In this document: one piece after another, positions 11,401 to 32,276 of the stretch | Position numbering within the stretch: the stretch's first letter is position 1 | How the letters are laid out: each line of letters opens with the position of its first letter | From: Lachnospiraceae bacterium | Lineage (GTDB): Bacteria > Bacillota > Clostridia > Lachnospirales > Lachnospiraceae | Reading direction: 5' to 3' | NCBI GenBank assembly: GCA_015057325.1 | Contig: SVEQ01000009.1 | Span: 1 to 64,000 of the forward strand | DNA length: 64,000 nt | Made by a program: the position numbers and the translations under genes | The notes under the pieces: generated by a model | Told to the model about the DNA's origin: nothing | Databases searched by the model: none | What the model saw: the letters and a program-made list of their open reading frames with translations, nothing else

Positions 11401-14400
11401 CATTTGCAGCTGCACCTCCGGTAAAGGTCTGATAGTCATAATCGCTGCTTCTTATAGGTTTTTTAAAGTAACCACTGGTCTCAAACCAGCTATGAGTATC
11501 ATCAAAATTGCTGCTTATCCAATTACCACCGGGACATCCTTCCCAGCCGGATTCATTACTTGTTCTATATCCAGAGACATAAACGCCTTGTCCTGAAAGA
11601 GCATCGGAATCAGTTGCGATACCATTTGTTGATGCATAAATCTTATTAACGCATCTGATTCTTTCATAGTTTTCTCTAAGTTTTGAACTTAAGCTGTTCA
11701 TGGTCCATGCAAGTGAGAAAGAACCGTCTCTTCCAATTGTACAATCATTAGGATAAAATGTTCCGGTTGCATCAGTACAACTGAAATTATAAGAACCACT
11801 TATTACAGTCCAATCATCGAGTTGCACAGTCGTCCAACCACGGTAACCATCACCGCCAAGGCTATTTGTCCAGTAACCACCCGCAGAGTTTCCTTCCGGA
11901 TGCCATGTGTAATTAACAACCAAACTATCCTGCGGTTCTCCAACAGGATCACCATAATGACCATCACTTGTCTCAATCACCTGAACACCAAGAGTTCGCA
12001 AATAAATATCATAGTTTATAGTACTGCTTCCTGTTTCCAAATAGTTCCGCAATATTTCTGACGGTGCTATACGAATCAACGCCTCACAATCCCTATCGTT
12101 GCCGGCTTGCTTTGTAATCGTAGCCGTACCTATCACCTTTCCGGTTCTTTTGTTTACAACATTAGCCGAATAACCATATGGTATAGTATCTAAGTATTGG
12201 TAACTTATTTGCTCATCCACTTCGTTTTCAAGGGCCTGGTGTGCAGGCTTTGTTTCTTTAACATATCTATCTGTACTCCATTTTGCATAGAACTGTACAT
12301 ATCCATGATAACTGTCATAACCTTTGTATGTAATCCCTGCCGTTTTATTTCTTGTGGAATAATTCTGCTCATCAGAAGATAAACTACACAGATTCTGGGT
12401 TCCGGTTGCTTTAATCCATTTATACTCTGAAGGGAAACCTTCGGCTTCCTTATATTCAGCCCTCTGATATGCCACAAAACTGAATGGTTCAGGTGAAATG
12501 CTGGAAAGATCTGTATAAGTCACAGAATATATTGTATTACCTAAATCATCTTTATCACTGCCTGTAGTTATACCACTACTTCCAAGTGACACACTACCCG
12601 ATGTTCCCCTAGCAGAAGGAAGTGAAACGGACTCATATGAAGCCGCATCAGGTATGCTCCAATGAAATACCGCTTTAGACGTTGTAGTCTCCTCTCCATC
12701 AAGAGTAACTGTACCTGAATTAACAAGTCTGTTGGAAGGGATTGCTCCCATAGCCCAGCTCATATCCACATCAAAATCAGTTCTAACAAAGTTTCCACTA
12801 TTTCTCTTTTCATATACTGTAAGAGTAAACTCACCGCTTGCAGGAATCAATTCAGAGCCTGTGTTGATGGTAATAGTTGTTCCTCTAAGATATTTGAATT
12901 TATCATCCTTTGTGGAAGGATAACCCTTTACACTATTATATGTCTTATAATACTTACCATCAATATAGACCAATGCCGAACTCCATACAGATGCTCCATA
13001 GTTGTTTTTCTCATCCCTGTCGATATCCCACTGCCAGAGCGGTGTCAACGAAACATCATATCTGTCTGTAGGATTGAATGGATCTCTTGCAGAATCATCT
13101 ACATATACCTTATACGGTACACCTGGCGATGTTGTTCTTCCTTTATCCATTGTAACCGGGGCATAATATACCGTAGTTTCCCAATTATCTTTTCTCTCTT
13201 CACTCGAAGGACTTACATATTTGCGAGAGGCTATGTAACCATCCTTTTCAGGTACAATATACTGATTACCGGTACCATTACTTGAACCCCACACAGCTCT
13301 GTCATACACATCATCCGGAAATACTTCCTCTTCTCCCTTAGCAGGATCTGCATATCTGTAATGAACTGTATTCTTATAATTCTTGTAATACTTAAATTCG
13401 TGTGTAAATGTTTCTTGATCAGTAAATTGATAATATGGAATTCTGATAGATTTACCGTCAAAATATTCATCGCTTAACACATATCCTTCCACAATCGGTG
13501 GGACAAATACATATGGTCTATCCTGTCGCTGTTTATAATTAGTATATGGAGCAGTAACTTCTGTACCGTCTTCTTTTACAAAAGAAAATGTACAATTAGT
13601 CTCTTTAACTCCATAATATAATTTCACAATCTGCCTTGCTGCAGGCATTGTGCCCTCATAAACAACTTCATCAGTATCAAGTGCATAGTTTCCGTTCTTA
13701 TCGTATCGCCAGTATGGGCTGATAACCTCATGTTCCACCCTGTAGGTAGTTCCGGCCTCAACATATGAATATGTCGGATCTTTAATCTTTTCAACCTCAT
13801 CAGGATTAGAACTGTCAGGTTTTAAAAGATACTGCACCTCTAATATAAACTTACCTTTGGAATATACTACAGTCTCTTTAATGCCAGCTGGCAAATCCGA
13901 GGCCTGAACATATCCCTCAACAACCATAATTGACGGCGTATAGAGAGCAATTTCCGGAGACGGATAACTATAGGAATCACCGACCTTTACGGTAGCATTT
14001 ATAGGATCGTGTGCCTTACTGCCATCTGAATATACATATTCTACGGTAAGGGTTGTTTCTTTACCTACGTATTTTACATCTATCGTCTTATCCTCATTAG
14101 CCATCACTCCGGACACAGTCGAATCCGCATACTGGCATGTATAACCATCTATAGTCGGAACCTCTACACTATACGCCTCTCCCTCTTCAAGATACTCTAT
14201 ATGAGGGGATGCTATCGTCATCTTATTCTGGTTGATAAAACGGACCGTCAGCTTGTGCTTATCCGAAGACGGTTCAGGACCTACTGTTAATTCATTTAAA
14301 TTCTTCCAGCCCGTAGAAAGCATCTTATACTGGCCTGATGAAGTATATGTCTTCACATATGCTTCCAAAGCCACATATACCGTCTCACCCGAAACAGGCA

Positions 14401-14800
14401 CGTAACCGTTGTACCAATATGGCGTTATAGAAAATGATGCCACGCCATCGGTAACTGACAACGCCGAAGGTGACAGGGTAAAAATACCCTTCTCATAAAT
14501 GTTGTCATCAGCCTCCCTAGCACCTACATACATTTCATATTCAACATACGAACCCGGAACCGTTGAAAATGTTCCGGAAAATGTCCAGTTACCAGCTGCA
14601 TTTGGCGTACTTGATGATGTTAATGTAAGCATTTCGGGTGGAAGTGTCTCACATCCACTGTCCGCTTCCTTAACAGCCTGTAAAACAGTCGGTGCATAGA
14701 CTCCGCCTGCATGCACATCTGTTACAGAAAAGGCTATACCTGCTAACACCGTAAAGCACGTAATCAGACAAATTAGACTTCTTTTAATCATCTTACTCAT
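8411..14800 (-). CDS. Giant secreted multidomain surface protein (MucBP-like repeats, BspA-type LRR, basic C-terminus)
   Basis: 2129 aa. A signal peptide (about 1-31, ending DVHA) is followed by MucBP/bacterial-Ig-like repeats (about 180-480; strands such as TLTVEYVYSDGSKAHD). A very long beta-rich middle has no family I recognise. Then come a Pro/Thr/Ser linker (about 1885-1960), LRR_5/BspA-type repeats (about 1965-2065; AFSGCEKLKNVSIGNNV) and a lysine-rich tail ending VKIKY. There is no LPXTG sorting signal. ATG 14800 is chosen over 14839 because GGAG lies 8 nt upstream and the signal peptide starts there. Its promoter bears the LytTR-type double repeat. Adhesion to host or plant glycans is plausible but unproven. 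Confidence 0.85.
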   Translation of the reverse strand: MSKMIKRSLICLITCFTVLAGIAFSVTDVHAGGVYAPTVLQAVKEADSGCETLPPEMLTLTSSSTPNAAGNWTFSGTFSTVPGSYVEYEMYVGAREADDNIYEKGIFTLSPSALSVTDGVASFSITPYWYNGYVPVSGETVYVALEAYVKTYTSSGQYKMLSTGWKNLNELTVGPEPSSDKHKLTVRFINQNKMTIASPHIEYLEEGEAYSVEVPTIDGYTCQYADSTVSGVMANEDKTIDVKYVGKETTLTVEYVYSDGSKAHDPINATVKVGDSYSYPSPEIALYTPSIMVVEGYVQASDLPAGIKETVVYSKGKFILEVQYLLKPDSSNPDEVEKIKDPTYSYVEAGTTYRVEHEVISPYWRYDKNGNYALDTDEVVYEGTMPAARQIVKLYYGVKETNCTFSFVKEDGTEVTAPYTNYKQRQDRPYVFVPPIVEGYVLSDEYFDGKSIRIPYYQFTDQETFTHEFKYYKNYKNTVHYRYADPAKGEEEVFPDDVYDRAVWGSSNGTGNQYIVPEKDGYIASRKYVSPSSEERKDNWETTVYYAPVTMDKGRTTSPGVPYKVYVDDSARDPFNPTDRYDVSLTPLWQWDIDRDEKNNYGASVWSSALVYIDGKYYKTYNSVKGYPSTKDDKFKYLRGTTITINTGSELIPASGEFTLTVYEKRNSGNFVRTDFDVDMSWAMGAIPSNRLVNSGTVTLDGEETTTSKAVFHWSIPDAASYESVSLPSARGTSGSVSLGSSGITTGSDKDDLGNTIYSVTYTDLSSISPEPFSFVAYQRAEYKEAEGFPSEYKWIKATGTQNLCSLSSDEQNYSTRNKTAGITYKGYDSYHGYVQFYAKWSTDRYVKETKPAHQALENEVDEQISYQYLDTIPYGYSANVVNKRTGKVIGTATITKQAGNDRDCEALIRIAPSEILRNYLETGSSTINYDIYLRTLGVQVIETSDGHYGDPVGEPQDSLVVNYTWHPEGNSAGGYWTNSLGGDGYRGWTTVQLDDWTVISGSYNFSCTDATGTFYPNDCTIGRDGSFSLAWTMNSLSSKLRENYERIRCVNKIYASTNGIATDSDALSGQGVYVSGYRTSNESGWEGCPGGNWISSNFDDTHSWFETSGYFKKPIRSSDYDYQTFTGGAAANVLVNLAGWYWEEDKGEGENITYGKVHFFKGSVRDDVTVSNGRTEDIISEIKVTKDEVKLIKEEGEDARITLDMEWTHKIKHIGQDEIVEDNIDPYLKPYEEGIEEDSMDSKLAASVEETHPLADNNMSIEVYPIGVNGIRDLSNFNEAKILYDNTYYIESFEKTDSGCKLKCKNLNRSAMDTTRIPDGYEVVIKYLNDKGTTIKTFTHRIMLEKDKGNGEVFFQIDDEGNAVVRLSSDEVLSEKINIDMYDNNGNIVKNGTLTGTSGNNNIYRYSDDIKGAFLEKDSNNARTQWFKLNVENVKKENLSKYYVIVHGHDYDRNPFDENEKHYATAENFVKIERASVNNGTFRIAYTLTLPEDGLDSYDTYGVTESSFNISSQDGKAEYVIDKDIELQASDYNYGNTTRAFSYTEEAKDNKDSTKLIYFGEEKATDLLGDKLYAKVSVKNPRYMATKAAHDLKSEVITIEEQPLLAVTSASVDMMGNVKLAGTYDPGTVTLKYNSLDFNIICPDGFKWTNTIEYRNKNFTYSDTAGTFSYNGKLFDIFRGAKAMTHYSIKDFKKQVGKQFKCSVSTTYPVLESKAINLTFGGKLKPANNMITQATYNNSGYLKVTVPTGYLEYGITVDNVVEQALENDLGLLIISEDNFTLAFPNETLATLGGKSDTEISVLNMTGDELENVTGSGLTASGVYDFTVSNEFTGDVEVGLPTGQVPSGKQTAVYYVDAKGNKEDMKAKVVTDNGGSSRAVFTTSHNSTYVVVYEGEGTTQAPQPDPQPSTGDTPAPNPTPTETPATPATTGTSLTDESTAATFTVTSKEGEEPEVAYTGSESSKEKTVTVPETFTDNGTTYKVTTIAADAFKDNKTITKVTIGKNVETIEANAFSGCEKLKNVSIGNNVTEIGSKAFANCKALTNITIPANVTKIGAQAFAGDSKLKVITIKSKKLTKKSVKNALKKNKAKTVTVKVKVGSKKLNKKYAQIYKKIFTKGNVGRKVKIKY

Positions 14801-14887
14801 ACCTTTTTCTCCTTTCTGCTTTTCATACCATAAATACAAATATATGGGACCGTAACCCCTCCCATATATGTAAAATATAATGTCATA

Positions 14888-14955
14888 ATTATACCAAATA
14901 TCAATCTCAAAATCCGTTTTTATGTCTATTCGGTCGTTTTTCGTGTCTATTCGGT
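14888..14955 (-). promoter_or_regulatory. LytTR-type operator and -10 box (site A)
   Basis: On the minus strand two copies of ACCGAATAG (14947-14955 and 14926-14934) are separated by 12 bp, a 21-bp period or two helical turns. A -10 TATAAT at 14888-14893 starts 33 bp downstream of the proximal copy. There is no good -35, which suggests activator dependence. The same layout recurs at three other promoters in this island. Confidence 0.75.
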
Positions 14956-14961
14956 CAAAAT

Positions 14962-15000
14962 CAAAAAAATCCCGACAACTACCTTAGTAATTGGCGGGAT
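14962..15000 (-). terminator. Terminator of the 814-aa surface-protein gene
   Basis: Hairpin arms at 14969-14978 and 14991-15000 with one mismatch, then a T run on the minus strand (14963-14969). It belongs to the ATCCCGACAA hairpin family and ends 13 nt before the operator of the next gene. Confidence 0.8.
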
Positions 15001-15010
15001 TTAATCTCAT

Positions 15011-17455
15011 TTAATATTTCACTTTGACTTTCTTACCTACATTTTTCTTCGTAAAAAACTTCTTATAGAGTTTTGCGTACTTCTTATTAAGTTTCTTCGA
15101 ACCGACGTCAACCTTAACTGTTATTGTCTTTGCCTTACTTCCTTTAAATGCATTTTTAACACTCTTCTTGGTTAACTTCTTGGTTTTCACAACCACCGTA
15201 CTTATCTTGGACTTATTGAATGCTTTCGCCGAAAGTGTATCGATATTCTTACCGAGAATTACCTTCGTTGCTGCGCAGCCGCTAAATGCATTCTCATCAA
15301 CGGAAGTAACCTTATATGTCACACCATCAAGAATTACGTCATCCGATACTACAACACTTTTTGCCTTTGTATCTGTTGTACTCTTATATTCAACCTCCGG
15401 TGTTTCTCCGACTTTTGATGTTACAACGACATTCGCTTTAGCCGATGTATCGGTATCCGCCGTCCCCTCTGCTTTAGGGGTACCGGTTGCGGTAGGTGCC
15501 TGTGTTGTTGCAGGGGGTTCTGACGTTACATCCGCGGTCTTCTTTTCGTCACTCAACTTCTGTTCCTCTGAAGTCTTCTGCACAGGGTCCGTTGTATGGC
15601 TTCCAGTGCCCACAATCTCATATGTAACATCATACGTTCCTGCAGCATCCTTGCTAGAACTTGCTTTTACAGTAACCTTATAAGTCCCCGGTTCTTTTGA
15701 ATTTTCATCGGAATACTTGACCGTATAATCTCTAGTTTTGTCTGAATATTCAAGTTTAACATCGCCGGCCCAAACACCGGTAACTTCAGGTTTTTGCACT
15801 TCTCCGTTATAGGCAAATGATGTCTGCGAAAGAGTTACTTTTGATATTCCGGGCACAATCTTAAACGTACAATTATCCGTTCCCTGATAATTCCCCTTCA
15901 TTGTAATGATTGCCTTTGCCTCACCATAATCAATATTATTCTCATACGAAAGCATGTAATCAACATCCTCTTTCAAAACCAACATTACGTCATAAATACG
16001 ATTAACTCCGTCAACATTCTCTTTTACAGTCATGTCATACTTAACATATAAAGGTTTAGGCGTCACAGGTGTGCCTGTGTACGGAGTCTTTTCCACATAA
16101 CAATAAAGACATCCATCAACACCAATAGTATGCGGATTAATCTTCCATGTGTATGTCTTGTCCTCAGTTGTACCGTCACTCCATGTTTTAGTATTATCAG
16201 TAAGTGATGCTTTAATTGTGTAGGTTCCCGCATTGGTAGCCTTCGTATCCCCACTCCATTTAAAACCATCCCATGTTGATGTTTCAAATATGGCTGATTT
16301 TTCCTTACTGTCATAAGTATATTCTGTTGATACAATGGCATCTTTGGGTAATAATACTTTACCATTATCAATCGGCTCAATCACAACTGTCTTTGCTACT
16401 GTTCCGTCTGCCTTCAAAATTCTTGCCCCTGCTTTGTATGCCCCCGCAGGCGTTGAATATTGCAAGTGTTCTTTATCATGATTATAACCGGAAGAACTAA
16501 TCGCCGTAGTCTCATATCCATTTTTAAATGAATCATTTGGATTAGCTATTGCCGTAACCTTTTTAATTCCCGGTTCTATGGTAAACTTACCATAATCATT
16601 TGCTATTCCGCCTGTCTGACTGCCATAATCGCTGTTAGACTTACCGGTAACCTCACCACCGGTAATAGTAAGGTCATGGTGACTATAAATACCATACTTG
16701 TATCCTTCAGCATATATGGTACCGCCTTTAATAGTTACATCTCCCGTTCCTGTATTGGTATCTCTTTTGGTTCCTATTCCTGCACCAAAGCCTTTGGCAG
16801 TGACTGTACCACCATTAATGGTTATCGGGCCAATTTCACTGTAGATTCCACAAACCTCATAAATGTATGAACTTGAAGCATCAAGACCCTCGCATACCGT
16901 TTGTGCTGTTATATTCGTGTCATCATTTCCTTTAATCTCAAGTGGACCATAAGCATAAATTGCCGGAGCATCAGAGTCAGATGTAACCGTAACCTTGCCT
17001 GAAAGGGCAAGTGATCCTGCAGCAACAAGACTTCCATATGATGAAGTCTGTGCACAGTATATTCCGCTACTGGTTGTATTAATAACAATGCCGTTACCTG
17101 TACCATTTATGTCAAGTGCACATCCATTTGTCTGAATCCCCGATATTCCGGTAATTGTACCATTTCCAACAATTTTAAGTTCTTCATCATCCGTATATAT
17201 TACAGTTTTCTTATAGGCCGCATCATAAATTGTTGTCCCTTGCGGCTCAAAAACAAGTACGGCACCATCAAGTGTAAGTGTATTAGTTTGAGCATCATAT
17301 GTCACATTACCCGATGTAACTGCATTAGTAACTTCGCCGGAACCGGTAACCTCAACTCCTCCAACATACAGGCTTGCCGAAGCACTAATAGGTGCCAAAA
17401 CAACACATACCATAGCACAAACAAATGCCATCAAAATCTTTTTACATACTCCCAT
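15011..17455 (-). CDS. Secreted surface protein: beta-helix carbohydrate-binding-like, Ig/MBG-like repeats, LRR, basic C-terminus
   Basis: 814 aa. Signal peptide about 1-27 (ending SASA). Residues about 28-330 show short repeated strands and turns (NVTYDAQTNTLTLDGA, then many ITGG/IKGG turns), as in Cthe_2159-type carbohydrate-binding beta-helix proteins. About 370-640 are Ig/MBG-like modules (NAGTYTIKASL, EPGTYKVTVKA). A Thr/Pro linker, a short LRR_5 segment (VDENAFSGC) and the lysine-rich tail ending VKVKY follow. The C-terminal 190 residues are nearly the same as in the 555-aa protein at 23.9 kb. GTT/ATG choice: ATG 17455 has GGAGG 7 nt upstream. Controlled by LytTR-type site B. Confidence 0.82.
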   Translation of the reverse strand: MGVCKKILMAFVCAMVCVVLAPISASASLYVGGVEVTGSGEVTNAVTSGNVTYDAQTNTLTLDGAVLVFEPQGTTIYDAAYKKTVIYTDDEELKIVGNGTITGISGIQTNGCALDINGTGNGIVINTTSSGIYCAQTSSYGSLVAAGSLALSGKVTVTSDSDAPAIYAYGPLEIKGNDDTNITAQTVCEGLDASSSYIYEVCGIYSEIGPITINGGTVTAKGFGAGIGTKRDTNTGTGDVTIKGGTIYAEGYKYGIYSHHDLTITGGEVTGKSNSDYGSQTGGIANDYGKFTIEPGIKKVTAIANPNDSFKNGYETTAISSSGYNHDKEHLQYSTPAGAYKAGARILKADGTVAKTVVIEPIDNGKVLLPKDAIVSTEYTYDSKEKSAIFETSTWDGFKWSGDTKATNAGTYTIKASLTDNTKTWSDGTTEDKTYTWKINPHTIGVDGCLYCYVEKTPYTGTPVTPKPLYVKYDMTVKENVDGVNRIYDVMLVLKEDVDYMLSYENNIDYGEAKAIITMKGNYQGTDNCTFKIVPGISKVTLSQTSFAYNGEVQKPEVTGVWAGDVKLEYSDKTRDYTVKYSDENSKEPGTYKVTVKASSSKDAAGTYDVTYEIVGTGSHTTDPVQKTSEEQKLSDEKKTADVTSEPPATTQAPTATGTPKAEGTADTDTSAKANVVVTSKVGETPEVEYKSTTDTKAKSVVVSDDVILDGVTYKVTSVDENAFSGCAATKVILGKNIDTLSAKAFNKSKISTVVVKTKKLTKKSVKNAFKGSKAKTITVKVDVGSKKLNKKYAKLYKKFFTKKNVGKKVKVKY

Positions 17456-17503
17456 AAAACAACCTCCTATACCTTTATTCCAAAATGCTACCATCTGCGT
17501 ACT

Positions 17504-17572
17504 ATTATCTCAAATTACAAAGACATTTTCTATATTGTTTGCCTATTCGGTCGTTTTTCGTGTCTATTCGGT
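17504..17572 (-). promoter_or_regulatory. LytTR-type operator and -10 box (site B)
   Basis: Minus strand: ACCGAATAG copies at 17564-17572 and 17543-17551 with a 12-bp spacer, then a -10-like GATAAT at 17504-17509, 34 bp from the proximal copy. The ATG follows 49 bp later. Confidence 0.72.
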
Positions 17573-17579
17573 CAAAATC

Positions 17580-17617
17580 AAAAAAATCCCGACAACCACC
17601 GTAGTGATTGTCAGGAT
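17580..17617 (-). terminator. Terminator of the surface protein-LytTR-DUF3021 operon
   Basis: Arms 17586-17598 and 17605-17617 form a hairpin (inner CAC/GTG pairs extend it), followed on the minus strand by a T run at 17580-17586. It is a member of the same repeated hairpin family. The plus-strand side also ends in TTTT. Confidence 0.82.
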
Positions 17618-17650
17618 TTTATTAACATTTTATATGCTATTGCCTTGCAT

Positions 17651-18136
17651 TTAATCTGCAACCTCTTCCTTTTCTTTAAAAAGCTTGATGTCACGATTCA
17701 TTTCTCTTATCTCTTTACGATAGATAAGGTACTGTGACAACCATATTGCAACATAAGCTAAAAGCATTGAGGCAAACTGTATTACATTTTGGAAACTGTG
17801 GTAAGGTGTAAGCCATCCGTTAAACAATCCGACAAATACATAGACAGCCATTGTCACTCCAAAATGTATTGTTGTAGGCTTTAGGATTCCCCAATCCTCA
17901 ATCTCATAAACTACCGAGCCTCCGTTACCGACAAATCCCAAAAGTCCACCTGTCAAAAGTTCTAACAAGAGTCTTGGAACAGTTCTTCCTACCGCACTAC
18001 TTGAGTATTCATCAATATATGCTCCGGCATTTCCCGTAAACAGAGTACTTAGCAATATATTAATTATTATTGTAACCAGTATTCCAAGAGAAAAACCGAT
18101 TGCCGCTTTATATATGAATCTATTCTTTAAAGTCAT
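17651..18136 (-). CDS. DUF3021 family four-helix membrane protein (probable LytTR regulator antagonist)
   Basis: 161 aa with four predicted membrane helices (about 10-33, 57-78, 90-112 and 119-142) and a charged cytoplasmic tail rich in Lys/Glu. Size, topology and position directly after a receiver-less LytTR gene (24 bp gap) match DUF3021 proteins. In Streptococcus mutans-type LytTR Regulatory Systems (HdrRM, BrsRM) the membrane partner restrains the regulator; the same role here is inferred. GGAG precedes the ATG by 8 nt. Confidence 0.85.
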   Translation of the reverse strand: MTLKNRFIYKAAIGFSLGILVTIIINILLSTLFTGNAGAYIDEYSSSAVGRTVPRLLLELLTGGLLGFVGNGGSVVYEIEDWGILKPTTIHFGVTMAVYVFVGLFNGWLTPYHSFQNVIQFASMLLAYVAIWLSQYLIYRKEIREMNRDIKLFKEKEEVAD

Positions 18137-18160
18137 ATTATTTCTCCTTTCATACCTTAA

Positions 18161-18628
18161 TCATATTCCGCTTTTCAGTTTATCTCTAAGCGATTTAATA
18201 CACCTTCTGGCTACAAAACTTCGTACCCCGTTGTCAAAAACAACACCAACGGTACCATTTAACGAGAAATCAAAACTGTCAACCTTATACAGATTAACAA
18301 TCTCCGACTGTGATATGCGGAAGAATCTCTCCGAATCCAGTTCTTCCTCAAATCTTGCCATCGTGCCTTTGGCCGTATAGACAACATTCTTTGTCTCCAC
18401 CATAACCTTGCGTCCCTCGGTTTTGATACGATAAATATCTCTTTGAGAAATGAACTTCAGGTTCTCTTCATCGTATGCCGGAATCGGCGGATACTTATTT
18501 CGAGATGCATTCTCAATCGAGTATACTATGTTGTCAATCTGTTCCGTTTCCTTTTTCGTGTAGATATTGACAAATGTTTCTTCGTACTTTTCGTCAACGA
18601 TTACGTTGACTTCAATCATGTCTTTCAT
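18161..18628 (-). CDS. LytTR-domain transcriptional regulator (LRS type, no receiver)
   Basis: 155 aa. Residues about 50-152 form a LytTR DNA-binding domain: ISQRDIYRIKTEGRKVMV, then FFRISQSEIVNL and the terminal RRCIKSLRDKL. The first 50 residues are too short for a response-regulator receiver, so control must come from another partner, most simply the DUF3021 protein encoded next. It begins 12 bp after the upstream surface-protein gene with GGAG before the ATG, so it shares that gene's promoter. I infer that it binds the ACCGAATAG double repeats in this island. Confidence 0.88.
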   Translation of the reverse strand: MKDMIEVNVIVDEKYEETFVNIYTKKETEQIDNIVYSIENASRNKYPPIPAYDEENLKFISQRDIYRIKTEGRKVMVETKNVVYTAKGTMARFEEELDSERFFRISQSEIVNLYKVDSFDFSLNGTVGVVFDNGVRSFVARRCIKSLRDKLKSGI

Positions 18629-18640
18629 TACCTTCTCCTG

Positions 18641-21600
18641 TCACTTCTTTTCAAACATGTAATCCCCTGATGTGGCAACATAGAATTCGCGATTGCCTAT
18701 ATACACCGTTGAATCGCCCGCAACCTTCCAGCTACCGCCTTCCAACCCATACGACTTGGATATCTTGAGTGGCAACAGCCTTCCTGCAGGAACAATATTG
18801 TTTTCCATCCATGCAGCACATAACACAAGTGTTACAAAATGCTCATGTCCTGCCTTATCCTCTGCGGTCAACGAAAACTGTTTGATATCATCCTTCGAAT
18901 CAAGACTTGCCAGCACTTTTCCATCGGTAGCATTTATTTCATTCGTTGTTCCATCATCACAAACAATTTTAACCACAGATAAATTATCATCATTGAACAA
19001 CAATGTCAACTTATCGGCATAAATTGTTCTTCCATCCGAAACAAACACACTAACACCCGCATCCGTATATGCATTGGCGATAGTCGGCGAATCCTTGTCG
19101 ATTTGAATTTTTTCAGTGACTTCAACAGATTCTAACTGTGCGCCGTCAGAACTTCTTCTTATATAAACCGTTGTAATGTCATCAGTATAGAGAATGTCTT
19201 CTGTATACTTTCCGTTTCTTGACGTAGATATCTCATAACCCCTCGGAGCTTTCAAATACACATCAGTTACGTAATAGCCGTTCTTTCCTTGAGTTCCCGA
19301 TATGGTATAGGACGCTTTCGTGTCGGAAAGGTATTTGATTTCAAACTCTTTTTCCACAGAAACCGCATTGTATTTGTCCGTCTCAGGAACATCCACCTTA
19401 AGCACATACTTTCCGGCCTCAACAGGCTTCTCACTTGTATATGCCGACTCATCTTCACCCGCTTTTCTATAACTAAATGTTGCCTTGTCCTTGCCATCTG
19501 AATCTGTGGAAAGCACCGGCTCATATTTAACTCCCACATACTGATCCGACAATTTGACCGTTGCTGTAGCCGTTTTCTTTTTGATGCTAAATGTCGCCTC
19601 ACGAACAACTTTCTCATATTTCTTTGTTTCAGGAACCGTCGCACGTACAGTGTAGTCTCCCGCCTTCTCCGGTTTGATTTTACTGTAAGAAGCATCCGCA
19701 TCAGTCGTAACCTTGTATTCAAATACAACCTTACCGTCAGAATCAGTTGAGAATACAGGGTCGTAACTCGCTCCAACATACACATCCGTAACCGAAAGCG
19801 ATGTATTTTTCGAAACCATCTTACTTATCGTAAATGAGTCCTCACAACTAATTGTCTCCATATCCTCACCGCTTATCGTTGCACGCACTTTGTACTTGCC
19901 CGCATCCTGCGGTTTGGTTGTTGTATATGATGTGGCATTTTCAGCCTTATACTCAATTACAGATTCATACTCCACGCCGCTATCAACGTGTACTGCAAGA
20001 ACAGGCTCATACGGTGTTCCAACAAATGTATTAGGTACAGTAATCTCTGCCGTTCCGTTTTTGAACTTCCCGATTGTAAATGTGTCATAACATATCGTTT
20101 CGTTATATTTGCTTGTTTTAGGTATTGTTACTTTGAGCTTGTATGTACCCGGTTTGCTTGGCGTAGTACCCGAATAATTTTCTTCGCTTGACAATGTGTA
20201 TTTATAATCAATGCTACTTTCAACCTCAGACAAATCAACGCACGTCACGACAGGATTTATCTCTCCGCCATACTCGACATCCGCTACCGTAACACCGGTA
20301 TCAGACGGACGTTCATTTAATTTTATATTAAACTCTCCTGAGCAGACTATATCAGCGTAATCACCATGAGCCGGAATTGTTGCACTTACCGTATACGTAC
20401 CTTCCATATTCGGCTTCGATATAGCATTGCCGTCCTTATCATAATATGAGTAAAAATCCGAAGCCGAATCATCTATTGTTTCATTATAATCCTCAATAGT
20501 TATCGAAGGTGCCCACGAATCATCAACACACACGATTCCCGCGTCTCCCACGCTAATTGTACCGGTCAAAGTTTTTAAAGGTGCATTAAGCGTAAATTGC
20601 AGTTTTGCCGATTCATTACCTGCCTTGTCTTTAGCTACTAATGCAACTTGTTTCGGCTTACCAAACTCCGAATCTATTGTGACAGCAATACTTGTGTCAT
20701 CATCATGTTCTTGTGTATATGTTGTTTCCGCTCCATCTATAGTTGCAATAACTTTATCAATATTATCATCTTCATATTGAACCTCAACCTTGCCCGCTCT
20801 AAATGAGGCATTATTATCTATTGATTTTTCTACATCATCAATGAACGATTTAGTAATAACCGGTTTTTCGGAATCAAAAACGATACTGTCAAGTCCGTCA
20901 ACCAAACTGTTTAGTTCCTGTGCCATGGTATATGCGCCATCACCTCTCTGCAAGGCTATTTTAACATTCGGACTATATGTATCGCCCGAGTACAATTCAT
21001 CCTTTGTAAGAGTAAGTGATTCAGAAAATTCTCCCGAATCCCCTTTTCTGATTTTGTATCCCGTGTTAGGTTTTACCGTAATACAATCTTTGACATAAGC
21101 AGGATTGCCTTCGACAGAAAGATAATTCGTTCCATCCACTTTGTTACACGCATCAAGTGGTAGTTCACTTATTGTGTAAGAATACTCTCCAGAAGTAGCA
21201 GCAGCATACGGACCATTTGCAGCCACATCGACTTTAAAATTATGTGTTCCCGCTACTGTCGGTTGTGTGCTTGAAAAAATCGATTCTCCTGCTGCTTTAT
21301 ATGTTATCGTATAGTGACTTGTCGTGTATGTAACTCCCGTGCCGCTTGCGTGCACATAATCTCTTAAGTCATAAGTCTGCCCCTGATAGATTGTTGGAAT
21401 AGTATCACAAGTAATCTCGAGTGGCTTTTTTTCTATTTCAAAATCTTTAGTAATTATCTTTTCTTCATACTCACTATCCCCAGCCACCTTTGCTTCTAAA
21501 GTATACTCACCCACTGCCGTCGGAACTTCTCCGGTATATGTGCTGTCATCCGATCCCTTTTCTTTGTATCTTATTACAACATCCTTTCCGGTGGTCGAAC

Positions 21601-22480
21601 TACCTGTTATATTAATTGTTTCTCCGATTGTATATTTTTCCTTATACCCGGTAAGTGTAATATCTTGAGGCTTTTTACCGTATTCCAAATGGATATAAAA
21701 ACCGTTATTGCTATTACCTGCCATATCAAATGTTTTATATGAACATGTCAACGTCTGTGATTCATCAACAAGGAATTCTACAGTTTCTTCTAATGCATAT
21801 TCTTCCGAACTTAATTCGCGCTTATCCTCTGCAACTGTTGCATTATTAACTTTGCTCTTATATTTAGGCATTATAATACTGTATCCATCTCCCGGATTAT
21901 AAAACAAATGATTTTCCGAACCATCTTTTATTCGAAATCTGACTGTCAGACTATAACCGGCCCTGATATTTGCGCCGCTTTCAAAAGCACCAATTTCTTC
22001 CGCCTCGCCATCACTCGTATATTTCACTTTTGCCGAAATCACAGTGACATCATGGGGACCCGTCTGATCTCTTAATATATCTTTTATAGTCGTTGAAGCA
22101 TTTATTATATCTTCTTTAGAAATAGGTGTTCCCGGTTCTGTACTTGTTTCCTCTCTAATGTATATATCATCATCGTTATATTGTCCATAAAATTCGCCAT
22201 ATTTAATTTCACTGCCATAGACTCCATCCTGTTCTTTACAAATACTATAGCCGGATTCGGCGGTAAAAATCACTTCTGTGTCAACCGAACCATTAATATA
22301 ATATATTTTCTTTCCACTAACAGGATCCTGATATTCATTAGGGCAATCATTAACAGTAACCGTCACTTTTGATGCCAGTGAATCTTCTGCTTCAACACCC
22401 ATCGGAACCGCCCACAAAAGGCTTACAACCATAATAAATGCCAGTGTTAAACTTGATATACGTCTATTCATTTTTCTCAT
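18641..22480 (-). CDS. Secreted Ig/MBG-like repeat adhesin, first gene of the LytTR operon
   Basis: 1279 aa. Signal peptide about 1-30 (ending VEAE). At least six modules of 75-85 residues repeat with a PxxAGxYxVxATVPETxKY-type end (about 290-1040), resembling MBG/Ig-like surface repeats. A C-terminal region of about 220 residues is shared with the 912-aa protein at 29.5 kb and ends in WKVAGDSTVYIGNREF and GDYMFEKK. It has no lysine-rich tail, LRR or LPXTG. ATG 22480 is preferred to a TTG two codons earlier because of AGAGG placed 9 nt upstream. Driven by LytTR-type site C. Confidence 0.82.
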   Translation of the reverse strand: MRKMNRRISSLTLAFIMVVSLLWAVPMGVEAEDSLASKVTVTVNDCPNEYQDPVSGKKIYYINGSVDTEVIFTAESGYSICKEQDGVYGSEIKYGEFYGQYNDDDIYIREETSTEPGTPISKEDIINASTTIKDILRDQTGPHDVTVISAKVKYTSDGEAEEIGAFESGANIRAGYSLTVRFRIKDGSENHLFYNPGDGYSIIMPKYKSKVNNATVAEDKRELSSEEYALEETVEFLVDESQTLTCSYKTFDMAGNSNNGFYIHLEYGKKPQDITLTGYKEKYTIGETINITGSSTTGKDVVIRYKEKGSDDSTYTGEVPTAVGEYTLEAKVAGDSEYEEKIITKDFEIEKKPLEITCDTIPTIYQGQTYDLRDYVHASGTGVTYTTSHYTITYKAAGESIFSSTQPTVAGTHNFKVDVAANGPYAAATSGEYSYTISELPLDACNKVDGTNYLSVEGNPAYVKDCITVKPNTGYKIRKGDSGEFSESLTLTKDELYSGDTYSPNVKIALQRGDGAYTMAQELNSLVDGLDSIVFDSEKPVITKSFIDDVEKSIDNNASFRAGKVEVQYEDDNIDKVIATIDGAETTYTQEHDDDTSIAVTIDSEFGKPKQVALVAKDKAGNESAKLQFTLNAPLKTLTGTISVGDAGIVCVDDSWAPSITIEDYNETIDDSASDFYSYYDKDGNAISKPNMEGTYTVSATIPAHGDYADIVCSGEFNIKLNERPSDTGVTVADVEYGGEINPVVTCVDLSEVESSIDYKYTLSSEENYSGTTPSKPGTYKLKVTIPKTSKYNETICYDTFTIGKFKNGTAEITVPNTFVGTPYEPVLAVHVDSGVEYESVIEYKAENATSYTTTKPQDAGKYKVRATISGEDMETISCEDSFTISKMVSKNTSLSVTDVYVGASYDPVFSTDSDGKVVFEYKVTTDADASYSKIKPEKAGDYTVRATVPETKKYEKVVREATFSIKKKTATATVKLSDQYVGVKYEPVLSTDSDGKDKATFSYRKAGEDESAYTSEKPVEAGKYVLKVDVPETDKYNAVSVEKEFEIKYLSDTKASYTISGTQGKNGYYVTDVYLKAPRGYEISTSRNGKYTEDILYTDDITTVYIRRSSDGAQLESVEVTEKIQIDKDSPTIANAYTDAGVSVFVSDGRTIYADKLTLLFNDDNLSVVKIVCDDGTTNEINATDGKVLASLDSKDDIKQFSLTAEDKAGHEHFVTLVLCAAWMENNIVPAGRLLPLKISKSYGLEGGSWKVAGDSTVYIGNREFYVATSGDYMFEKK

Positions 22481-22530
22481 AAACAATCACCTCTTTTATG
22501 GTACAAACATGTATAGTATTCAATGAATAA

Positions 22531-22598
22531 ATTATATCAAATTAAAAATCAAAAGTACGGTTTTATGTCTATTCGGTCGTTTTTCGTGTCTATTCGGT
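22531..22598 (-). promoter_or_regulatory. LytTR-type operator and -10 box (site C)
   Basis: Minus strand: ACCGAATAG at 22590-22598 and 22569-22577 with a 12-bp spacer, then TATAAT at 22531-22536, 33 bp from the proximal copy, the same spacing as sites A and D. It drives the operon that encodes the LytTR regulator itself, which implies autoregulation. Confidence 0.75.
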
Positions 22599-22603
22599 CA
22601 AAT

Positions 22604-22641
22604 ATAAAAATCCCGACAACCACCTTAGTGATTATCGGGAT
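22604..22641 (-). terminator. Terminator of the PD-(D/E)XK gene
   Basis: Arms 22610-22619 and 22632-22641 (one G-U pair) with a T run at 22604-22610 on the minus strand. The loop sequence is also conserved with the other members of the hairpin family. It ends 11 nt before operator site C. Confidence 0.8.
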
Positions 22642-22663
22642 TACATTAATCGATTTTTCAAGT

Positions 22664-23644
22664 TCAGGCCAATATTTCCGTTGCCATTTTTGTTGCTTCT
22701 TCTTTTGATAACAAAGGGTCTGTTGACATGTAATGAGCAGCAAGCTTAGCTATATTCTCTGCTCTTTCTTCTGTTTTGCCTTCTTGTCTGCCCTCAGTTC
22801 TTCCCTCGGCAATGCCTTGTCTATGTGCCGTTATAACCTCTAGTTCTATTACTTTACCGCCCATAATATCACCCACTCTCTTCTGAACTTTCTCTCTTTT
22901 CATAGTCATTTTGTATGCGACTTTGTGTATCATATTAATTATAACACTACATGACATAACAGGCAAGAACCCGCTTTCCACTTCTTTCTCTAACCTTGCA
23001 AGTATATCCCTGTACACATCCGAAAACTCCTCAAGCCTTTCCGAATCTTCGTTAATGGCATCCAACGAAGATTCCATATTGAAAATATAAAATGGCAGCA
23101 GCATATATAAATGTTTCTCAAATATATCTTCAATACCAAGCTCCGACATTCGTCTTATAGCAATGGGATATTCCACACTTCCACCAGGTGTTGACAGTTT
23201 AACATACGCCTTGTCAAAATCTCCACTACCTCGTAGCAACAAAATTCCACTATACGGCATATCAACACGCAAACAATGTTCTTTAATCGCTGACGAATCC
23301 AATGCCACCTGTACATCATATTCAAACATCCTAACAAGCAACGTGTCATCATACTTCTTGCTTTCACACTCATGATGATATAACCTATGTTTTCCATTAT
23401 CAACAATCTCAAATGCCGAGTCTGTTATTCGCTTCTGTTCCGAGTGATTCTCGCCCTCTATGAAATGCTCATTACGTCCCCTTATTATCTTTGCAGAACT
23501 ACCATAGTTCTCATTATGAAAATAATTGACAAATGGTATTAGAAGATCGTCACACTCGCTCTCCATTGTACGGTAAGCATCATCATATGCAAAATCCGAA
23601 TAAACGCCATCTTTTTTCTTACTTTCTTTCTTCTTCCCGGACAT
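22664..23644 (-). CDS. PD-(D/E)XK nuclease-like protein (Rpn/YhgA-type family)
   Basis: 326 aa. The N-terminal half holds a plausible PD-(D/E)XK core (RITDSAFEI, then HHECESKK, near residues 72-97). The C-terminus has the Gly/Arg/Glu-rich stretch AEGRTEGRQEGKTEERA (near residues 277-294), a hallmark of Rpn-like recombination-promoting nucleases and related transposase-like proteins. No terminal inverted repeats are evident, so mobility is not shown. AAGG lies 6 nt before the ATG. It carries no LytTR-type site upstream and interrupts the surface-protein array. Confidence 0.68.
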   Translation of the reverse strand: MSGKKKESKKKDGVYSDFAYDDAYRTMESECDDLLIPFVNYFHNENYGSSAKIIRGRNEHFIEGENHSEQKRITDSAFEIVDNGKHRLYHHECESKKYDDTLLVRMFEYDVQVALDSSAIKEHCLRVDMPYSGILLLRGSGDFDKAYVKLSTPGGSVEYPIAIRRMSELGIEDIFEKHLYMLLPFYIFNMESSLDAINEDSERLEEFSDVYRDILARLEKEVESGFLPVMSCSVIINMIHKVAYKMTMKREKVQKRVGDIMGGKVIELEVITAHRQGIAEGRTEGRQEGKTEERAENIAKLAAHYMSTDPLLSKEEATKMATEILA

Positions 23645-23743
23645 CCAATACCTTATCCTTCCGGTGTAACGTCACACAAAATATTCGATCGTGTGCATAG
23701 CATACCACATCAAAAATACCCCGTCTACAATTGTGTATAAAGA

Positions 23744-23821
23744 TACATAATATTCTAATTTGCCAAAAAACAGGCGGTTTTTTATGTACAAAAATACATA
23801 AAGTTATGTACTTTTTATGTA
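23744..23821. repeat. Cluster of TTATGTA/TACATAA heptamers
   Basis: Five copies lie in 78 bp: TACATAA at 23744 and 23795, TTATGTA at 23782, 23804 and 23815. The pair 23782-23801 forms an inverted repeat with a 6-bp loop. They sit upstream of the PD-(D/E)XK gene and beside the terminator of the next unit. They may be an operator or AT-rich coincidence. Confidence 0.4.
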
Positions 23822-23823
23822 AC

Positions 23824-23890
23824 AAAAAATCCCGACAACCACATTGATATGTACCCTCTTAACATGGACTATATCATTGTGATTGCCGGG
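23824..23890 (-). terminator. Terminator of the 555-aa surface-protein gene
   Basis: Long imperfect inverted repeat, arms 23831-23850 and 23871-23890 (three mismatches), followed by a T run on the minus strand (23824-23829). The outer part matches the repeated ATCCCGACAACCAC family; this copy has a longer stem and loop. Confidence 0.82.
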
Positions 23891-23905
23891 ACCGGCTCAT
23901 AATTC

Positions 23906-25573
23906 TTAATATTTAACTTTAACCTTCTTGCCTACATTCTTCTTTGTGAATATCTTCTTGTAAAGTTTGGCGTACTTCTTGTTAAGTTTCTTCGAGCCAA
24001 CATTAACCTTGATAGTTATTGATTTTGCCTTACTTCCCTTGAATGCATTCTTAACACTTTTCTTCGTAAGTTTCTTGGTCTTAATAACCACCGTACTTAT
24101 CTTCGATTTATTGAATGCACCAGTAGAGAGTGTTTCTACATTCTTACCTATTGTTGCTTTCGTTGCGACACATCCACTAAATGCATTCTTATCCACAGAA
24201 GTAACTTCATATGTCACACCGTCAAGTGTTACCGTATCCGATACTACAACACTCTTTGCCTTTATATCTGTTGTACTCTTATATTCAACCTCCGGTGTCT
24301 CTCCGACTTTTGATGTTACTACAACCTCTGCCTTAGAAGTGCTATCCGTAACCGTAGTTCCCTCTGCCTTAGGGGTATCAACTGCAGCAGGTGCTTGTGT
24401 TGTTGCAGGTGCCGATGTAGTTCCAGCCGAACCGCTTGATGCAGCCGTAACAGTTAAAACACATGTCGCAGACTTTCCACCTGCAGTAGCAGTAATCGTT
24501 GCTGTACCTGCAGCAACTGCTGTAACCTTTCCACCATCAACTGTAGCAACAGCCTGATTACTTGAAGACCATGTAACAGTGCTGTTAGTTGCGTTAGAAG
24601 GAGCTACTGTTGCAGTTAATGTCTCACTGCCACCTGCTGTAAGAGCCATAGTTGACTTGTCAAGAGAAACACCGGTAACAGGAATCGTTGTATTAATCTC
24701 AACAGGAAACTGAACTTTCTTAAACGTTAATTCTGCTCCCGTAGCATTAATTGCAATATCTGTTGCAGCACCTGTTCCTGTATAATCTGCCCATCCCTTG
24801 CCTGCAATTTCATTTTTTACATTACCGTAAATTGCAACATACTCTTCTTGTTCTGCAACATTTGTTCCTGCTCTGGCAATAAGAGTACTGTCTTTTGAAA
24901 TAATAACATCGCCTTTCACTCCATTTATTTGATCATAACAATAAATCCCTGAACTCATATCACCACTACCGCCTGATAGTCCTTCCGCAATAAGATTTCC
25001 ACCGTTGATCTTAACAAAGGCATTTTCGCCAACAACCTGCATTCCATTGCATCGTGTTCCCACAGCCTTGACATTTCCACCATTAATCGTAACGGAATTC
25101 GTATTAATCCCATCATATAAAGCCGTCAAAGATATGTCTCCACTTTCAATAACAATACCATTCTGATAACTATTAATGGCAAAATCTTCCGTATTAACAT
25201 TTAGACTTCCTTGACCTTTTAAAACAAGCGTGCCTACACTTTCAATTCCTACTTTATATCCATCAATACTATTTTTTCCTTGTAGTTCTATATTAAGTGC
25301 TTCTGTACCCGAATATAAAATAGCTGCGTAGGGTCTTCCTTCTTCATCTCCTGTGTAGTTATAACTTGCACCATTCAATGTCAGCGTATGTGTTGATGCC
25401 ACATAAGTCCACCCTTCACCTGAACAATCATTGTCACTATCATAATTTGAACCCGAAATACACAGGTCATCCGTCGCAGCGTACACATTTTTAGTTGTAG
25501 CTTGAACTACCCCAAAACTTAGAACAAAACAGATTAATAATGATATACATTTCCAATTCATTTTTCTACCCAT
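23906..25573 (-). CDS. Secreted surface protein: carbohydrate-binding-like, BIG2, LRR, basic C-terminus
   Basis: 555 aa. Signal peptide about 1-33. Residues about 35-285 resemble the beta-helix carbohydrate-binding domain of the 814-aa neighbour (HTLTLNGASYNYTG; ITINGGNV-like turns). A BIG2 Ig-like domain follows at about 292-375 (VTGVSLDKSTMALTAGG; AAGTATITATAGG). Then a Thr/Ala/Pro linker, a short LRR_5 segment and the lysine-rich tail ending VKVKY. There is no LPXTG. GGAGG is 7 nt before the ATG. Promoter carries LytTR-type site D. The C-terminal third looks like a recent duplicate of the 814-aa protein. Confidence 0.83.
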   Translation of the reverse strand: MGRKMNWKCISLLICFVLSFGVVQATTKNVYAATDDLCISGSNYDSDNDCSGEGWTYVASTHTLTLNGASYNYTGDEEGRPYAAILYSGTEALNIELQGKNSIDGYKVGIESVGTLVLKGQGSLNVNTEDFAINSYQNGIVIESGDISLTALYDGINTNSVTINGGNVKAVGTRCNGMQVVGENAFVKINGGNLIAEGLSGGSGDMSSGIYCYDQINGVKGDVIISKDSTLIARAGTNVAEQEEYVAIYGNVKNEIAGKGWADYTGTGAATDIAINATGAELTFKKVQFPVEINTTIPVTGVSLDKSTMALTAGGSETLTATVAPSNATNSTVTWSSSNQAVATVDGGKVTAVAAGTATITATAGGKSATCVLTVTAASSGSAGTTSAPATTQAPAAVDTPKAEGTTVTDSTSKAEVVVTSKVGETPEVEYKSTTDIKAKSVVVSDTVTLDGVTYEVTSVDKNAFSGCVATKATIGKNVETLSTGAFNKSKISTVVIKTKKLTKKSVKNAFKGSKAKSITIKVNVGSKKLNKKYAKLYKKIFTKKNVGKKVKVKY

Positions 25574-25620
25574 ACATCTTCCTCCATTTCTAATACATTA
25601 ATAAGTTACCTAATGAACAC

Positions 25621-25688
25621 ATTATATCAAATTAAAAACCAAAAATATTGATATTTGTCTATTCGGTCGTTTTTCGTGTCTATTCGGT
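25621..25688 (-). promoter_or_regulatory. LytTR-type operator and -10 box (site D)
   Basis: Minus strand: ACCGAATAG at 25680-25688 and 25659-25667 with a 12-bp spacer, TATAAT at 25621-25626, 33 bp from the proximal copy. The distal copy ends 19 bp from the -35 of the divergent promoter at 25708, so a bound regulator could touch both. Confidence 0.75.
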
Positions 25689-29422: not shown

Positions 29423-29455
29423 AACTCCCTCAATTAATTATAGTCAAAACACAAT

Positions 29456-29481
29456 GTGGGCGACATAATCATGCCACCCAC
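29456..29481 (-). terminator. Possible intra-operon attenuating hairpin
   Basis: Arms 29456-29466 and 29471-29481 pair over 11 positions with G-U pairs and a 4-nt loop. On the minus strand a U-rich but broken tract (ATTGTGTTTT) follows. It lies between the adhesin-like gene and the cyclase gene and may reduce cyclase expression. Confidence 0.45.
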
Positions 29482-29494
29482 GTAATAACAAAGA

Positions 29495-32233: not shown

Positions 32234-32276
32234 AAAACCCCTCCTTAAGAAATGGTCTATAATTCATCATTTGCGA

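What the first reader, a model, noticed from the sequence alone, without database searches (positions are those of the whole stretch)
14888..25688. A four-gene surface-protein regulon marked by an identical LytTR-type double repeat
Seen: ACCGAATAG-N12-ACCGAATAG on the minus strand at 14926-14955, 17543-17572, 22569-22598 and 25659-25688. Each has 21-bp periodicity and each lies 33-34 bp from a TATAAT-like -10. Spacer bases are also conserved. I did not find the nonamer pair elsewhere in the window. Known: LytTR proteins bind paired direct repeats about two helical turns apart; from memory, HdrR/BrsR sites in Streptococcus mutans read ACCGTTTAG-N12-ACCGTTTAG, nearly the same. Inferred: one LytTR regulator activates all four secreted-protein genes. 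A LytTR Regulatory System running a surface-adhesin regulon in Lachnospiraceae would be new to me.
Basis: partly seen in the sequence, partly recalled or inferred. Interest (0 to 1): 0.9.

Follow-up and report, generated by a model that had tools for sequence, protein, structure and literature searches.

The report
Membrane-gated switch for surface proteins
In a group of gut bacteria, a small DNA-binding protein paired with a membrane protein appears to switch on its own genes together with large secreted proteins through one shared DNA tag, an output that our searches did not find described for this little-studied class of bacterial switches.

Summary
Four identical 30-mers (ACCGAATAG-N12-ACCGAATAG, minus strand) lie before four secreted-protein genes; the 3.05 Mb genome holds no other copy closer than 3 mismatches. 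The likely regulator is in the cluster: site 3 precedes, in a row, a ~1280-aa secreted protein, a 155-aa stand-alone LytTR protein (18161-18628) and a DUF3021 membrane protein (17651-18136), the only adjacent LytTR/DUF3021 pair in the genome. This is the anatomy of a LytTR Regulatory System (LRS; PMC6193735), with a wiring that predicts positive feedback. In 26 loci with this LytTR subfamily the pair occurs 31 times at spacing 12 (up to 3 mismatches) and 0-2 times at each of 17 other spacings. Leaving out the window and its orthologue, 33 sites precede secreted proteins (19), LRS genes (8), other genes (5) or nothing callable (1); of background genes 52 of 226 look secreted, p = 7e-8 (heuristic secretion rule). 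Distant Lachnospiraceae DUF3021 systems use other nonamers (0 of 21 within 4 mismatches). LRS are known; an LRS branch tied to secreted-protein regulons was not found in our literature searches. Binding, activation and adhesion are inferred, not shown.

The parts
25659..25688 (-). Site 4: ACCGAATAG-N12-ACCGAATAG, upstream of A4
   Evidence: 0 mismatches; -10 TATAAT 32 bases on
25621..25626 (-). -10 TATAAT of site-4 promoter, preceded by TGA
23906..25573 (-). A4: 555-aa secreted protein, Big_2 and LRR_5, Cthe_2159 match below cut-off
   Evidence: N-terminal signal-like segment by heuristic
22609..22642 (-). Terminator-like hairpin just upstream of site 3
22569..22598 (-). Site 3: upstream of the A3-LytTR-DUF3021 genes (predicted feedback site)
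22531..22536 (-). -10 TATAAT of site-3 promoter, preceded by TGA
18641..22480 (-). A3: 1279-aa secreted protein from ATG at 22480 (1281 aa from TTG at 22486); only a WxLIP_HBD match below cut-off
18161..18628 (-). LytTR regulator, 155 aa, no receiver domain found; starts 12 bases after the A3 stop
   Evidence: PF04397 1.2e-21, the sole Pfam match; only one of 7 LytTR genes in the genome beside the one DUF3021 gene
17651..18136 (-). DUF3021 membrane protein, 161 aa, four TM-like segments; predicted inhibitor/sensor
   Evidence: PF11457 2.2e-23; hydropathy
17583..17620 (-). Terminator-like hairpin after DUF3021, just upstream of site 2
17543..17572 (-). Site 2: upstream of A2
17504..17509 (-). 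-10 GATAAT of site-2 promoter, preceded by TGA
15011..17494 (-). A2: 827-aa secreted protein, LRR_5 near C-terminus, beta-helix match below cut-off
14926..14955 (-). Site 1: upstream of A1
14888..14893 (-). -10 TATAAT of site-1 promoter, preceded by TGG
8411..14800 (-). A1: 2129-aa secreted protein from ATG at 14800 (2142 aa from TTG at 14839), MucBP and LRR_5 domains

Best explanation
This is a LytTR Regulatory System whose regulon is a set of large secreted, probably surface-associated proteins. The 155-aa LytTR protein binds the two ACCGAATAG repeats, 21 bases (about two helical turns) apart, just upstream of extended -10 promoters and activates them. The four-TM DUF3021 protein holds the regulator inactive until an unknown envelope or environmental signal relieves it. 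Because the LytTR and DUF3021 genes lie distal to A3 behind site 3, activation should feed back positively and switch A1, A2, A3, A4 and the regulator together. Shown: the sites, their exclusivity in this genome, the gene pair, the gene order, and recurrence of the same operator before secreted proteins and LRS genes in relatives. Inferred: co-transcription, binding, activation, membrane inhibition, feedback, surface location.
For: Four perfect sites, 0.05 expected, no other within 2 mismatches of the full nonamer pair in the genome. LytTR and DUF3021 domains, only such pair in the genome. The 32-33 base gap from repeat to -10 fits the PMC6193735 geometry (repeat, usually 10 bp, -35, 13-17 bp, -10). 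At the consensus threshold only the -10 of site 2 pairs with a -35-like hexamer, as expected of activator-dependent promoters. G010 keeps site-A4 and site-A3-LytTR-DUF3021. In 26 subfamily loci: 31 pairs at spacing 12, 0-2 at each of 17 other spacings, reversed nonamer 1 at spacing 12, all at up to 3 mismatches. A -10 match of 4 or more of 6 falls at 32-34 in 28 of 33 sites. A site stands within 450 bases of the LRS genes in 14 of 26 loci (10 of them at 3 mismatches or fewer) and only further upstream in 8. Sites outside the window and its orthologue precede secreted proteins 19 of 33, LRS genes 8 of 33. Of 33 distinct low-scoring DUF3021-linked LytTR loci, 21 have a repeat and none is within 4 mismatches of this one.
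Against: No binding, expression or mutant data. 4 of 26 subfamily loci show no site before the LytTR gene: L116 and L117 are cut at the 5' end, L108 has only 582 bases upstream, but L099 has 10 kb. Several of the sites counted have 4 mismatches, where other spacings also give 0-10 pairs each. Cassette duplication explains part of the identity among the four copies: an 88-base terminator+site block is 90% identical between sites 1 and 2. Genome-wide hits at up to 2 mismatches of the 16-base pattern are noisy: 138 against 58 for the reversed control in 21 genomes, my sums. In G024 and G025, same-genus genomes without DUF3021 hits, a near-identical pair adjoins a LytTR protein that reads like a response regulator, so the nonamer is not unique to LRS. 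Secretion was called by a home-made hydropathy rule. The 33 sites are not fully independent: some loci share spacer and related proteins, and two pairs of rows overlap. Consensus promoter hits also lie at 18644-18615 and 18537-18509, among 48 found against 37.8 (sd 6.2) in shuffles for the whole stretch, so a separate promoter for LytTR is not excluded; a hairpin-like hit lies inside A3 at 21040-21018.
Confidence: 0.85

Rival explanations
1. The sites are bound by another LytTR protein of the same cell, such as a two-component response regulator, and the local LytTR/DUF3021 pair is only a passenger behind A3.
For: The genome has six other LytTR genes; in G024/G025 a site of the same type with TATGAT 33 bases on adjoins a LytTR protein that reads like a response regulator and a neighbour that reads like a kinase (no family search run on these).
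Against: None of the six other LytTR loci shows a LytTR-type repeat followed by a -10 within the fetched 1.5 kb on either side, same strand only (my own scan), and no further close site exists in the genome. In relatives the site recurs within 450 bases of the LytTR/DUF3021 genes in 14 of 26 loci, and distant DUF3021 systems have other nonamers.
Confidence: 0.08
2. The LytTR protein represses rather than activates these promoters, so the system silences surface genes by default.
For: Only sequence position is known here; direction was not measured.
Against: The pair lies upstream of the promoter, not over the -10 or start, and for three of four promoters no -35-like hexamer was listed, a layout that suits activation; the S. 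mutans HdrR site in the same place activates (PMC6193735).
Confidence: 0.04
3. The four identical repeats are debris of recent cassette duplication with no regulatory role.
For: Terminator+site blocks and C-terminal gene ends are duplicated within the cluster.
Against: The upstream flank of site 4 is unrelated (30-33% identity to the others) while the 30-mer stays identical; the nonamer pair and its spacing persist in other genomes with diverged spacers before different secreted proteins.
Confidence: 0.02

Closest known systems
LytTR Regulatory Systems HdrRM and BrsRM of Streptococcus mutans (PMC6193735)
   Same: Stand-alone LytTR regulator next to a membrane protein (DUF3021 is one of two LRS membrane domains named there); 9-bp direct repeats 12 bp apart just upstream of the promoter; predicted autoregulation.
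   Different: Targets named there are bacteriocin, competence and cell-death genes, and some LRS have linked ABC transporters. Here the predicted targets are large secreted proteins, one lies ahead of the regulator in the same gene row, and the nonamer is ACCGAATAG rather than ACCACTTAT-like.
Other putative Lachnospiraceae LRS (Roseburia intestinalis, Butyrivibrio, Pseudobutyrivibrio, Anaerosporobacter in PMC6193735; family assignment recalled)
   Same: LytTR plus membrane protein; a direct repeat before the operon is tabulated for R. intestinalis.
   Different: Table 3 gives ACCACTTAC-13-ACCACTTG for R. intestinalis; in the sections and passages I saw no regulon is described for them beyond the operon and linked ABC transporters (supplement not seen).
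VirR/VirR-box regulon of Clostridium perfringens and AgrA (LytTR response regulators)
   Same: LytTR DNA-binding domain acting on paired direct repeats near promoters of secreted products (recalled; only the search listing was seen).
   Different: Those regulators have a receiver domain and a histidine kinase (recalled); no receiver match was found in this one.

Membership tests
LytTR Regulatory System (LRS) | LytTR-family regulator without receiver or kinase domain | tested here: met
   155 aa, PF04397 the only Pfam match
LytTR Regulatory System (LRS) | Adjacent multi-TM membrane protein (DUF3021 or DUF2154) | tested here: met
   PF11457 2.2e-23, four TM-like segments by hydropathy
LytTR Regulatory System (LRS) | Regulator gene upstream of membrane-protein gene | tested here: met
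   18161-18628 then 17651-18136 on minus strand; in relatives L118 and L119 the order is reversed
LytTR Regulatory System (LRS) | 9-bp direct repeats, 11-13 bp apart, just upstream of the promoter of the LRS operon | tested here: met
   Site 3, spacing 12, -10 at 32 bases; but the first gene behind it is A3, and the LytTR start is 3.9 kb on, so co-transcription is assumed
LytTR Regulatory System (LRS) | Direct binding and positive autoregulation | not testable with these tools
   needs gel shift and reporter
LytTR Regulatory System (LRS) | Membrane protein inhibits the regulator | not testable with these tools
   needs deletion strain
Two-component system with LytTR response regulator | Receiver domain in the regulator | tested here: not met
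   no Response_reg match
BspA-type/MucBP surface adhesins | Signal peptide plus LRR_5, MucBP or Ig-like domains | tested here: inconclusive
   Met for 3 of 4: A1, A2, A4 have LRR_5, A1 also MucBP, A4 also Big_2, with signal-like N-termini by heuristic; A3 has a signal-like N-terminus but no family above cut-off
Sortase-anchored surface proteins | C-terminal LPXTG-type motif | tested here: not met
   none in the last 80 residues of A1-A5
BspA-type/MucBP surface adhesins | Demonstrated adhesion | not testable with these tools
   bench assay needed

The most novel reading that the evidence does not exclude
A distinct LRS branch of Lachnospiraceae and close kin is a bistable surface-coat switch: positive feedback makes a cell either coat itself with a whole species-specific set of large secreted proteins or with none. 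The operator is the conserved unit while the proteins behind it turn over (LRR_5/Big_2, List_Bact_rpt/CarboxypepD_reg, He_PIG/CBM_X2), and in at least two members (L097, L118) the same site-led gene row also holds a receiver-type protein, an HPt protein and a hybrid histidine kinase, merging an LRS with a phosphorelay.
Probability: 0.35. Interest if true: 0.75.

Novelty: new variant of a known kind. Interest (0 to 1): 0.57.

Why it matters
PMC6193735 counts more than 4600 putative LRS operons but states that the only characterised examples are those of S. mutans. This subfamily comes with its probable targets attached: one operator, a regulator, a membrane partner and a consistent class of output (large secreted proteins) in many genomes. 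That gives a concrete, testable function for LRS outside streptococci and a route to what a DUF3021 protein senses, in gut bacteria whose contact with their surroundings presumably runs through such proteins.

Tried and rejected
A fifth site before the related A5 genes (32277-33185 FecR, 29495-32233 A5, 27626-29422 CHASE2 cyclase): in the window there is none at 4 mismatches or fewer apart from the four sites and one overlapping spacing-11 hit, although G005 and G016 have a one-mismatch site upstream of the FecR-like and A5-like genes, with an extra gene between in G016.

Solved structures with the LytTR subfamily profile: 0 matches at E 0.01. No structure prediction was run; the Pfam matches were clear.

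First genus scan with ACCGNNTAG pairs at 1 mismatch was too loose: 22 real hits against 19 control hits (my sums); the ACCGAATAG pair was used afterwards.

Rows dropped or merged: of the 15 regions fetched for 0-1 mismatch hits, four sites (L183, L186, L187, L195) have 3 mismatches over 18 positions and so fall below the 2-mismatch limit; L186, L187 and L195 lie inside open frames without a good -10. The L192 site is the same as L107:19661 and was merged. In one search L182:2104 has no downstream ATG frame of the set length; L112 and L196 each contribute two overlapping pairs; L107:16727 is a 238-aa protein with 4 TM-like windows counted as other; L107:19661 counted as other and secreted, because the later script looked for internal starts further in. 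G479:C20:17235 (1 mismatch, in L052) has no clear gene behind it and was in neither count. The output was cut, so L105-L110 were judged mainly.

Recalled S. mutans sequence ACCGTTTAG: 0 occurrences in PMC6193735 and PMC12323615 (word searches). Papers seen: PMC6193735 abstract, sections 9 and 11 and passages; PMC12323615 word search without a hit; all others as search listings only. Searches behind 'not found in print'.

After the filing check I recounted the nonamer comparison on distinct proteins and lowered the main confidence from 0.87 to 0.85, because most high-scoring loci there are the same places as my 26 loci and L126's repeat lies inside its frame.

Full report
Observation. The 30-mer ACCGAATAG-ACACGAAAAACG-ACCGAATAG occurs four times on the minus strand at the reported places, with 0 mismatches and 0.05 expected at up to 3 mismatches. 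In the whole genome (3,052,611 bases, 24 contigs) two further hits exist at 3 mismatches, against 3 for the reversed pattern. The site is invariant at 30 of 30 columns, against 4 of 60 upstream and 12 of 60 downstream. An extended -10 (TGN then TATAAT or GATAAT) follows after 32 or 33 bases.

Anatomy. Each site is followed on the minus strand by a long gene with a signal-like N-terminus: A4 23906-25573 (Big_2, LRR_5), A3 18641-22486 (no family above cut-off), A2 15011-17494 (LRR_5), A1 8411-14839 (MucBP, LRR_5). A3 is followed after 12 bases by a 155-aa LytTR protein (PF04397, 1.2e-21) and then by a 161-aa DUF3021 protein (PF11457, 2.2e-23). No minus-strand terminator-like hairpin was listed from the A3 stop through DUF3021; one hit lies inside A3 (21040-21018), and clear hairpins lie just before sites 2 and 3; a similar imperfect one can be read before site 1. 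So the regulator pair is most simply expressed from site 3; promoter-like consensus hits at 18644-18615 and 18537-18509 are among 48 found against 37.8 (sd 6.2) in shuffles for the whole stretch. The genome has 7 LytTR genes and one DUF3021 gene; this is the only adjacent pair.

Relatives in the genus. Of 26 genomes of the genus, own included, 12 have a DUF3021 match at E 0.001. G010 keeps site-A4 and site-A3-LytTR-DUF3021 and shows no A1 or A2 in the fetched stretch; G016 has a 3-mismatch site before a 2266-aa A1 relative; G020 has two LytTR-DUF3021 pairs, each with nearby sites. LytTR proteins of these genomes are 61-81% identical to the window's.

Relatives at large. A scan of the GTDB genome contigs with the LytTR alignment (two peptide patterns) gave 26 loci: 25 from records titled Lachnospiraceae, Eubacterium, Clostridiaceae or Clostridia, and one distant Paraglaciecola hit (L121) that I left out. 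Five of the 25 titles name rumen or omasum; the many RUG and RUI isolate names also suggest rumen (recalled). With the window that makes 26 loci, 362,052 bases. At spacing 12 there are 31 nonamer pairs with 3 mismatches or fewer; at each of the 17 other spacings from 5 to 22 there are 0 to 2; the reversed nonamer gives 1 at spacing 12. 19 of 26 loci hold at least one such site. LytTR is accompanied by DUF3021 in 24 of 26 (L112 ends at the contig edge; in L120 none was recognised). With sites of up to 4 mismatches (or 2 at spacing 13), a site stands within 450 bases of the pair in 14 of 26, only further upstream, up to 7.5 kb, in 8, and nowhere upstream in 4; whether the genes between are co-transcribed was not tested.

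Genome-wide test. In 21 genomes the 16-base ACCGAATA pair gives 138 hits at up to 2 mismatches against 58 for the reversed control (my sums), so 2-mismatch hits alone are weak. I fetched 15 further regions around 0-1 mismatch hits not yet in hand. Counting sites with 2 mismatches or fewer over 18 positions in L097-L120 and L182-L196 (that is, without the window and its G010 orthologue) and merging identical ones, 33 remain: 19 precede proteins called secreted, 8 LRS genes, 5 other genes, 1 nothing callable. Of the 5 others, three rows (L097, and two overlapping pairs in L112) precede genes with a receiver domain by Pfam, one (L107) a gene of similar sequence that was not scanned. Background genes in the same loci are called secreted in 52 of 226; comparing 19 secreted and 5 other with these, Fisher p = 7e-8. 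The secretion rule is a hydropathy heuristic, some sites are related, and the loci were chosen for LRS or sites, so the p value is a guide only. The earlier version, window and L096 included and 3 mismatches allowed, gave 14 secreted, 9 LRS, 6 other, 2 none of 31, background 45 of 196, p = 3.5e-5. A -10 match of 4 or more of 6 falls at 32, 33 or 34 in 28 of the 33, as the best of seven offsets. Targets differ in domains: LRR_5/Big_2, List_Bact_rpt/CarboxypepD_reg, He_PIG/CBM_X2, and several with no Pfam match.

Specificity. I compared promoters of DUF3021-linked LytTR genes across the family, on distinct proteins. Of 33 that score under 100 bits with the subfamily profile, 21 have a LytTR-type repeat in front and none is within 4 mismatches of the ACCGAATAG pair (5 to 10); typical are ACCACCTAT and ACCACTTAT/ACCGACTAT. 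Of 9 that score 175 bits or more, 5 have a repeat, all within 4 mismatches; but 7 of the 9 are the same places as in my 26 loci, and the repeat of L126 lies inside its frame without a -10. Three intermediate ones have ACCGCTTAT-like types or none. The scan required a generic LytTR core, so it is not unbiased. A caution: in G024 and G025 a near-identical pair adjoins a LytTR protein that reads like a response regulator.

Added element. In L097 the operator stands before a receiver-domain gene followed by an HPt-like protein (below its cut-off), a hybrid histidine kinase and then LytTR-DUF3021; in L118 a 3-mismatch site leads DUF3021, LytTR, a gene resembling the receiver protein, an HPt protein (above cut-off) and a hybrid kinase. 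The window genome has relatives of the receiver protein (best 36% identity) elsewhere, without a close site.

Mechanism. By the model worked out for HdrRM (PMC6193735: repeats 8 bp upstream of the -35, gel shift, reporter, membrane-protein deletion), the LytTR protein should activate from the paired repeats, the membrane protein should hold it inactive, and the operon should amplify itself. The window has the same parts in the same geometry. What differs is the output: secreted proteins, one of them ahead of the regulator in the same gene row. Binding, activation, inhibition and signal are inferred.

Novelty. LRS and their presence in genera of Lachnospiraceae are known. I found no paper on an LRS controlling surface or secreted structural proteins: 3 held papers mention DUF3021, and by titles and abstract openings none of the LytTR searches with adhesin, Lachnospiraceae or rumen listed one on the subject. 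The library lacks most subscription journals. I call it a new variant of a known kind.

Noticed in passing
L061:9354-9383 and L062:9794-9823 (G024, G025): ACCGAATAATCAAGCTGAACAACCGAATAG at the end of a 446-aa gene that follows a LytTR protein reading like a response regulator, just before a small lipoprotein-like gene, with TATGAT 33 bases on: perhaps a two-component LytTR system with nearly the same operator (no family search run).
   Followed up: partly
L007 (G000 C6:20366-20626) and L005 (G000 C7:217031-217276): LytTR proteins whose C-terminal part reads like an FHA domain (my reading of the sequence, no family search run).
   Followed up: no
window 27626-33185: FecR-like protein, a secreted A3 relative (A5) and a CHASE2 cyclase in a row; G005 and G016 carry a one-mismatch LytTR operator upstream of similar genes, the window does not.
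   Followed up: partly
window 22664-23644: 326-aa protein with no Pfam match, looking like an Rpn/PD-(D/E)XK transposase-type nuclease (recalled resemblance), between A4 and site 3; the frame found in G010 is shorter (198 aa).
   Followed up: no
window 8411-8710, 15011-15310, 23906-24205: A1, A2 and A4 share a lysine-rich C-terminal end (KKLTKKSVKNA...KKLNKKYA...) of unknown role, perhaps wall retention in place of sortase anchoring.
   Followed up: partly
L112:5599-5670; L196:391-441; window sites: The repeat may be longer than 9 bases (ACCGAATAGACA with 21-base period; three of four window sites); L112 and L196 have overlapping tandem pairs, i.e. three or more repeats in register.
   Followed up: partly
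L118 and L119: DUF3021 gene precedes the LytTR gene, the reverse of the order reported for LRS.
   Followed up: no
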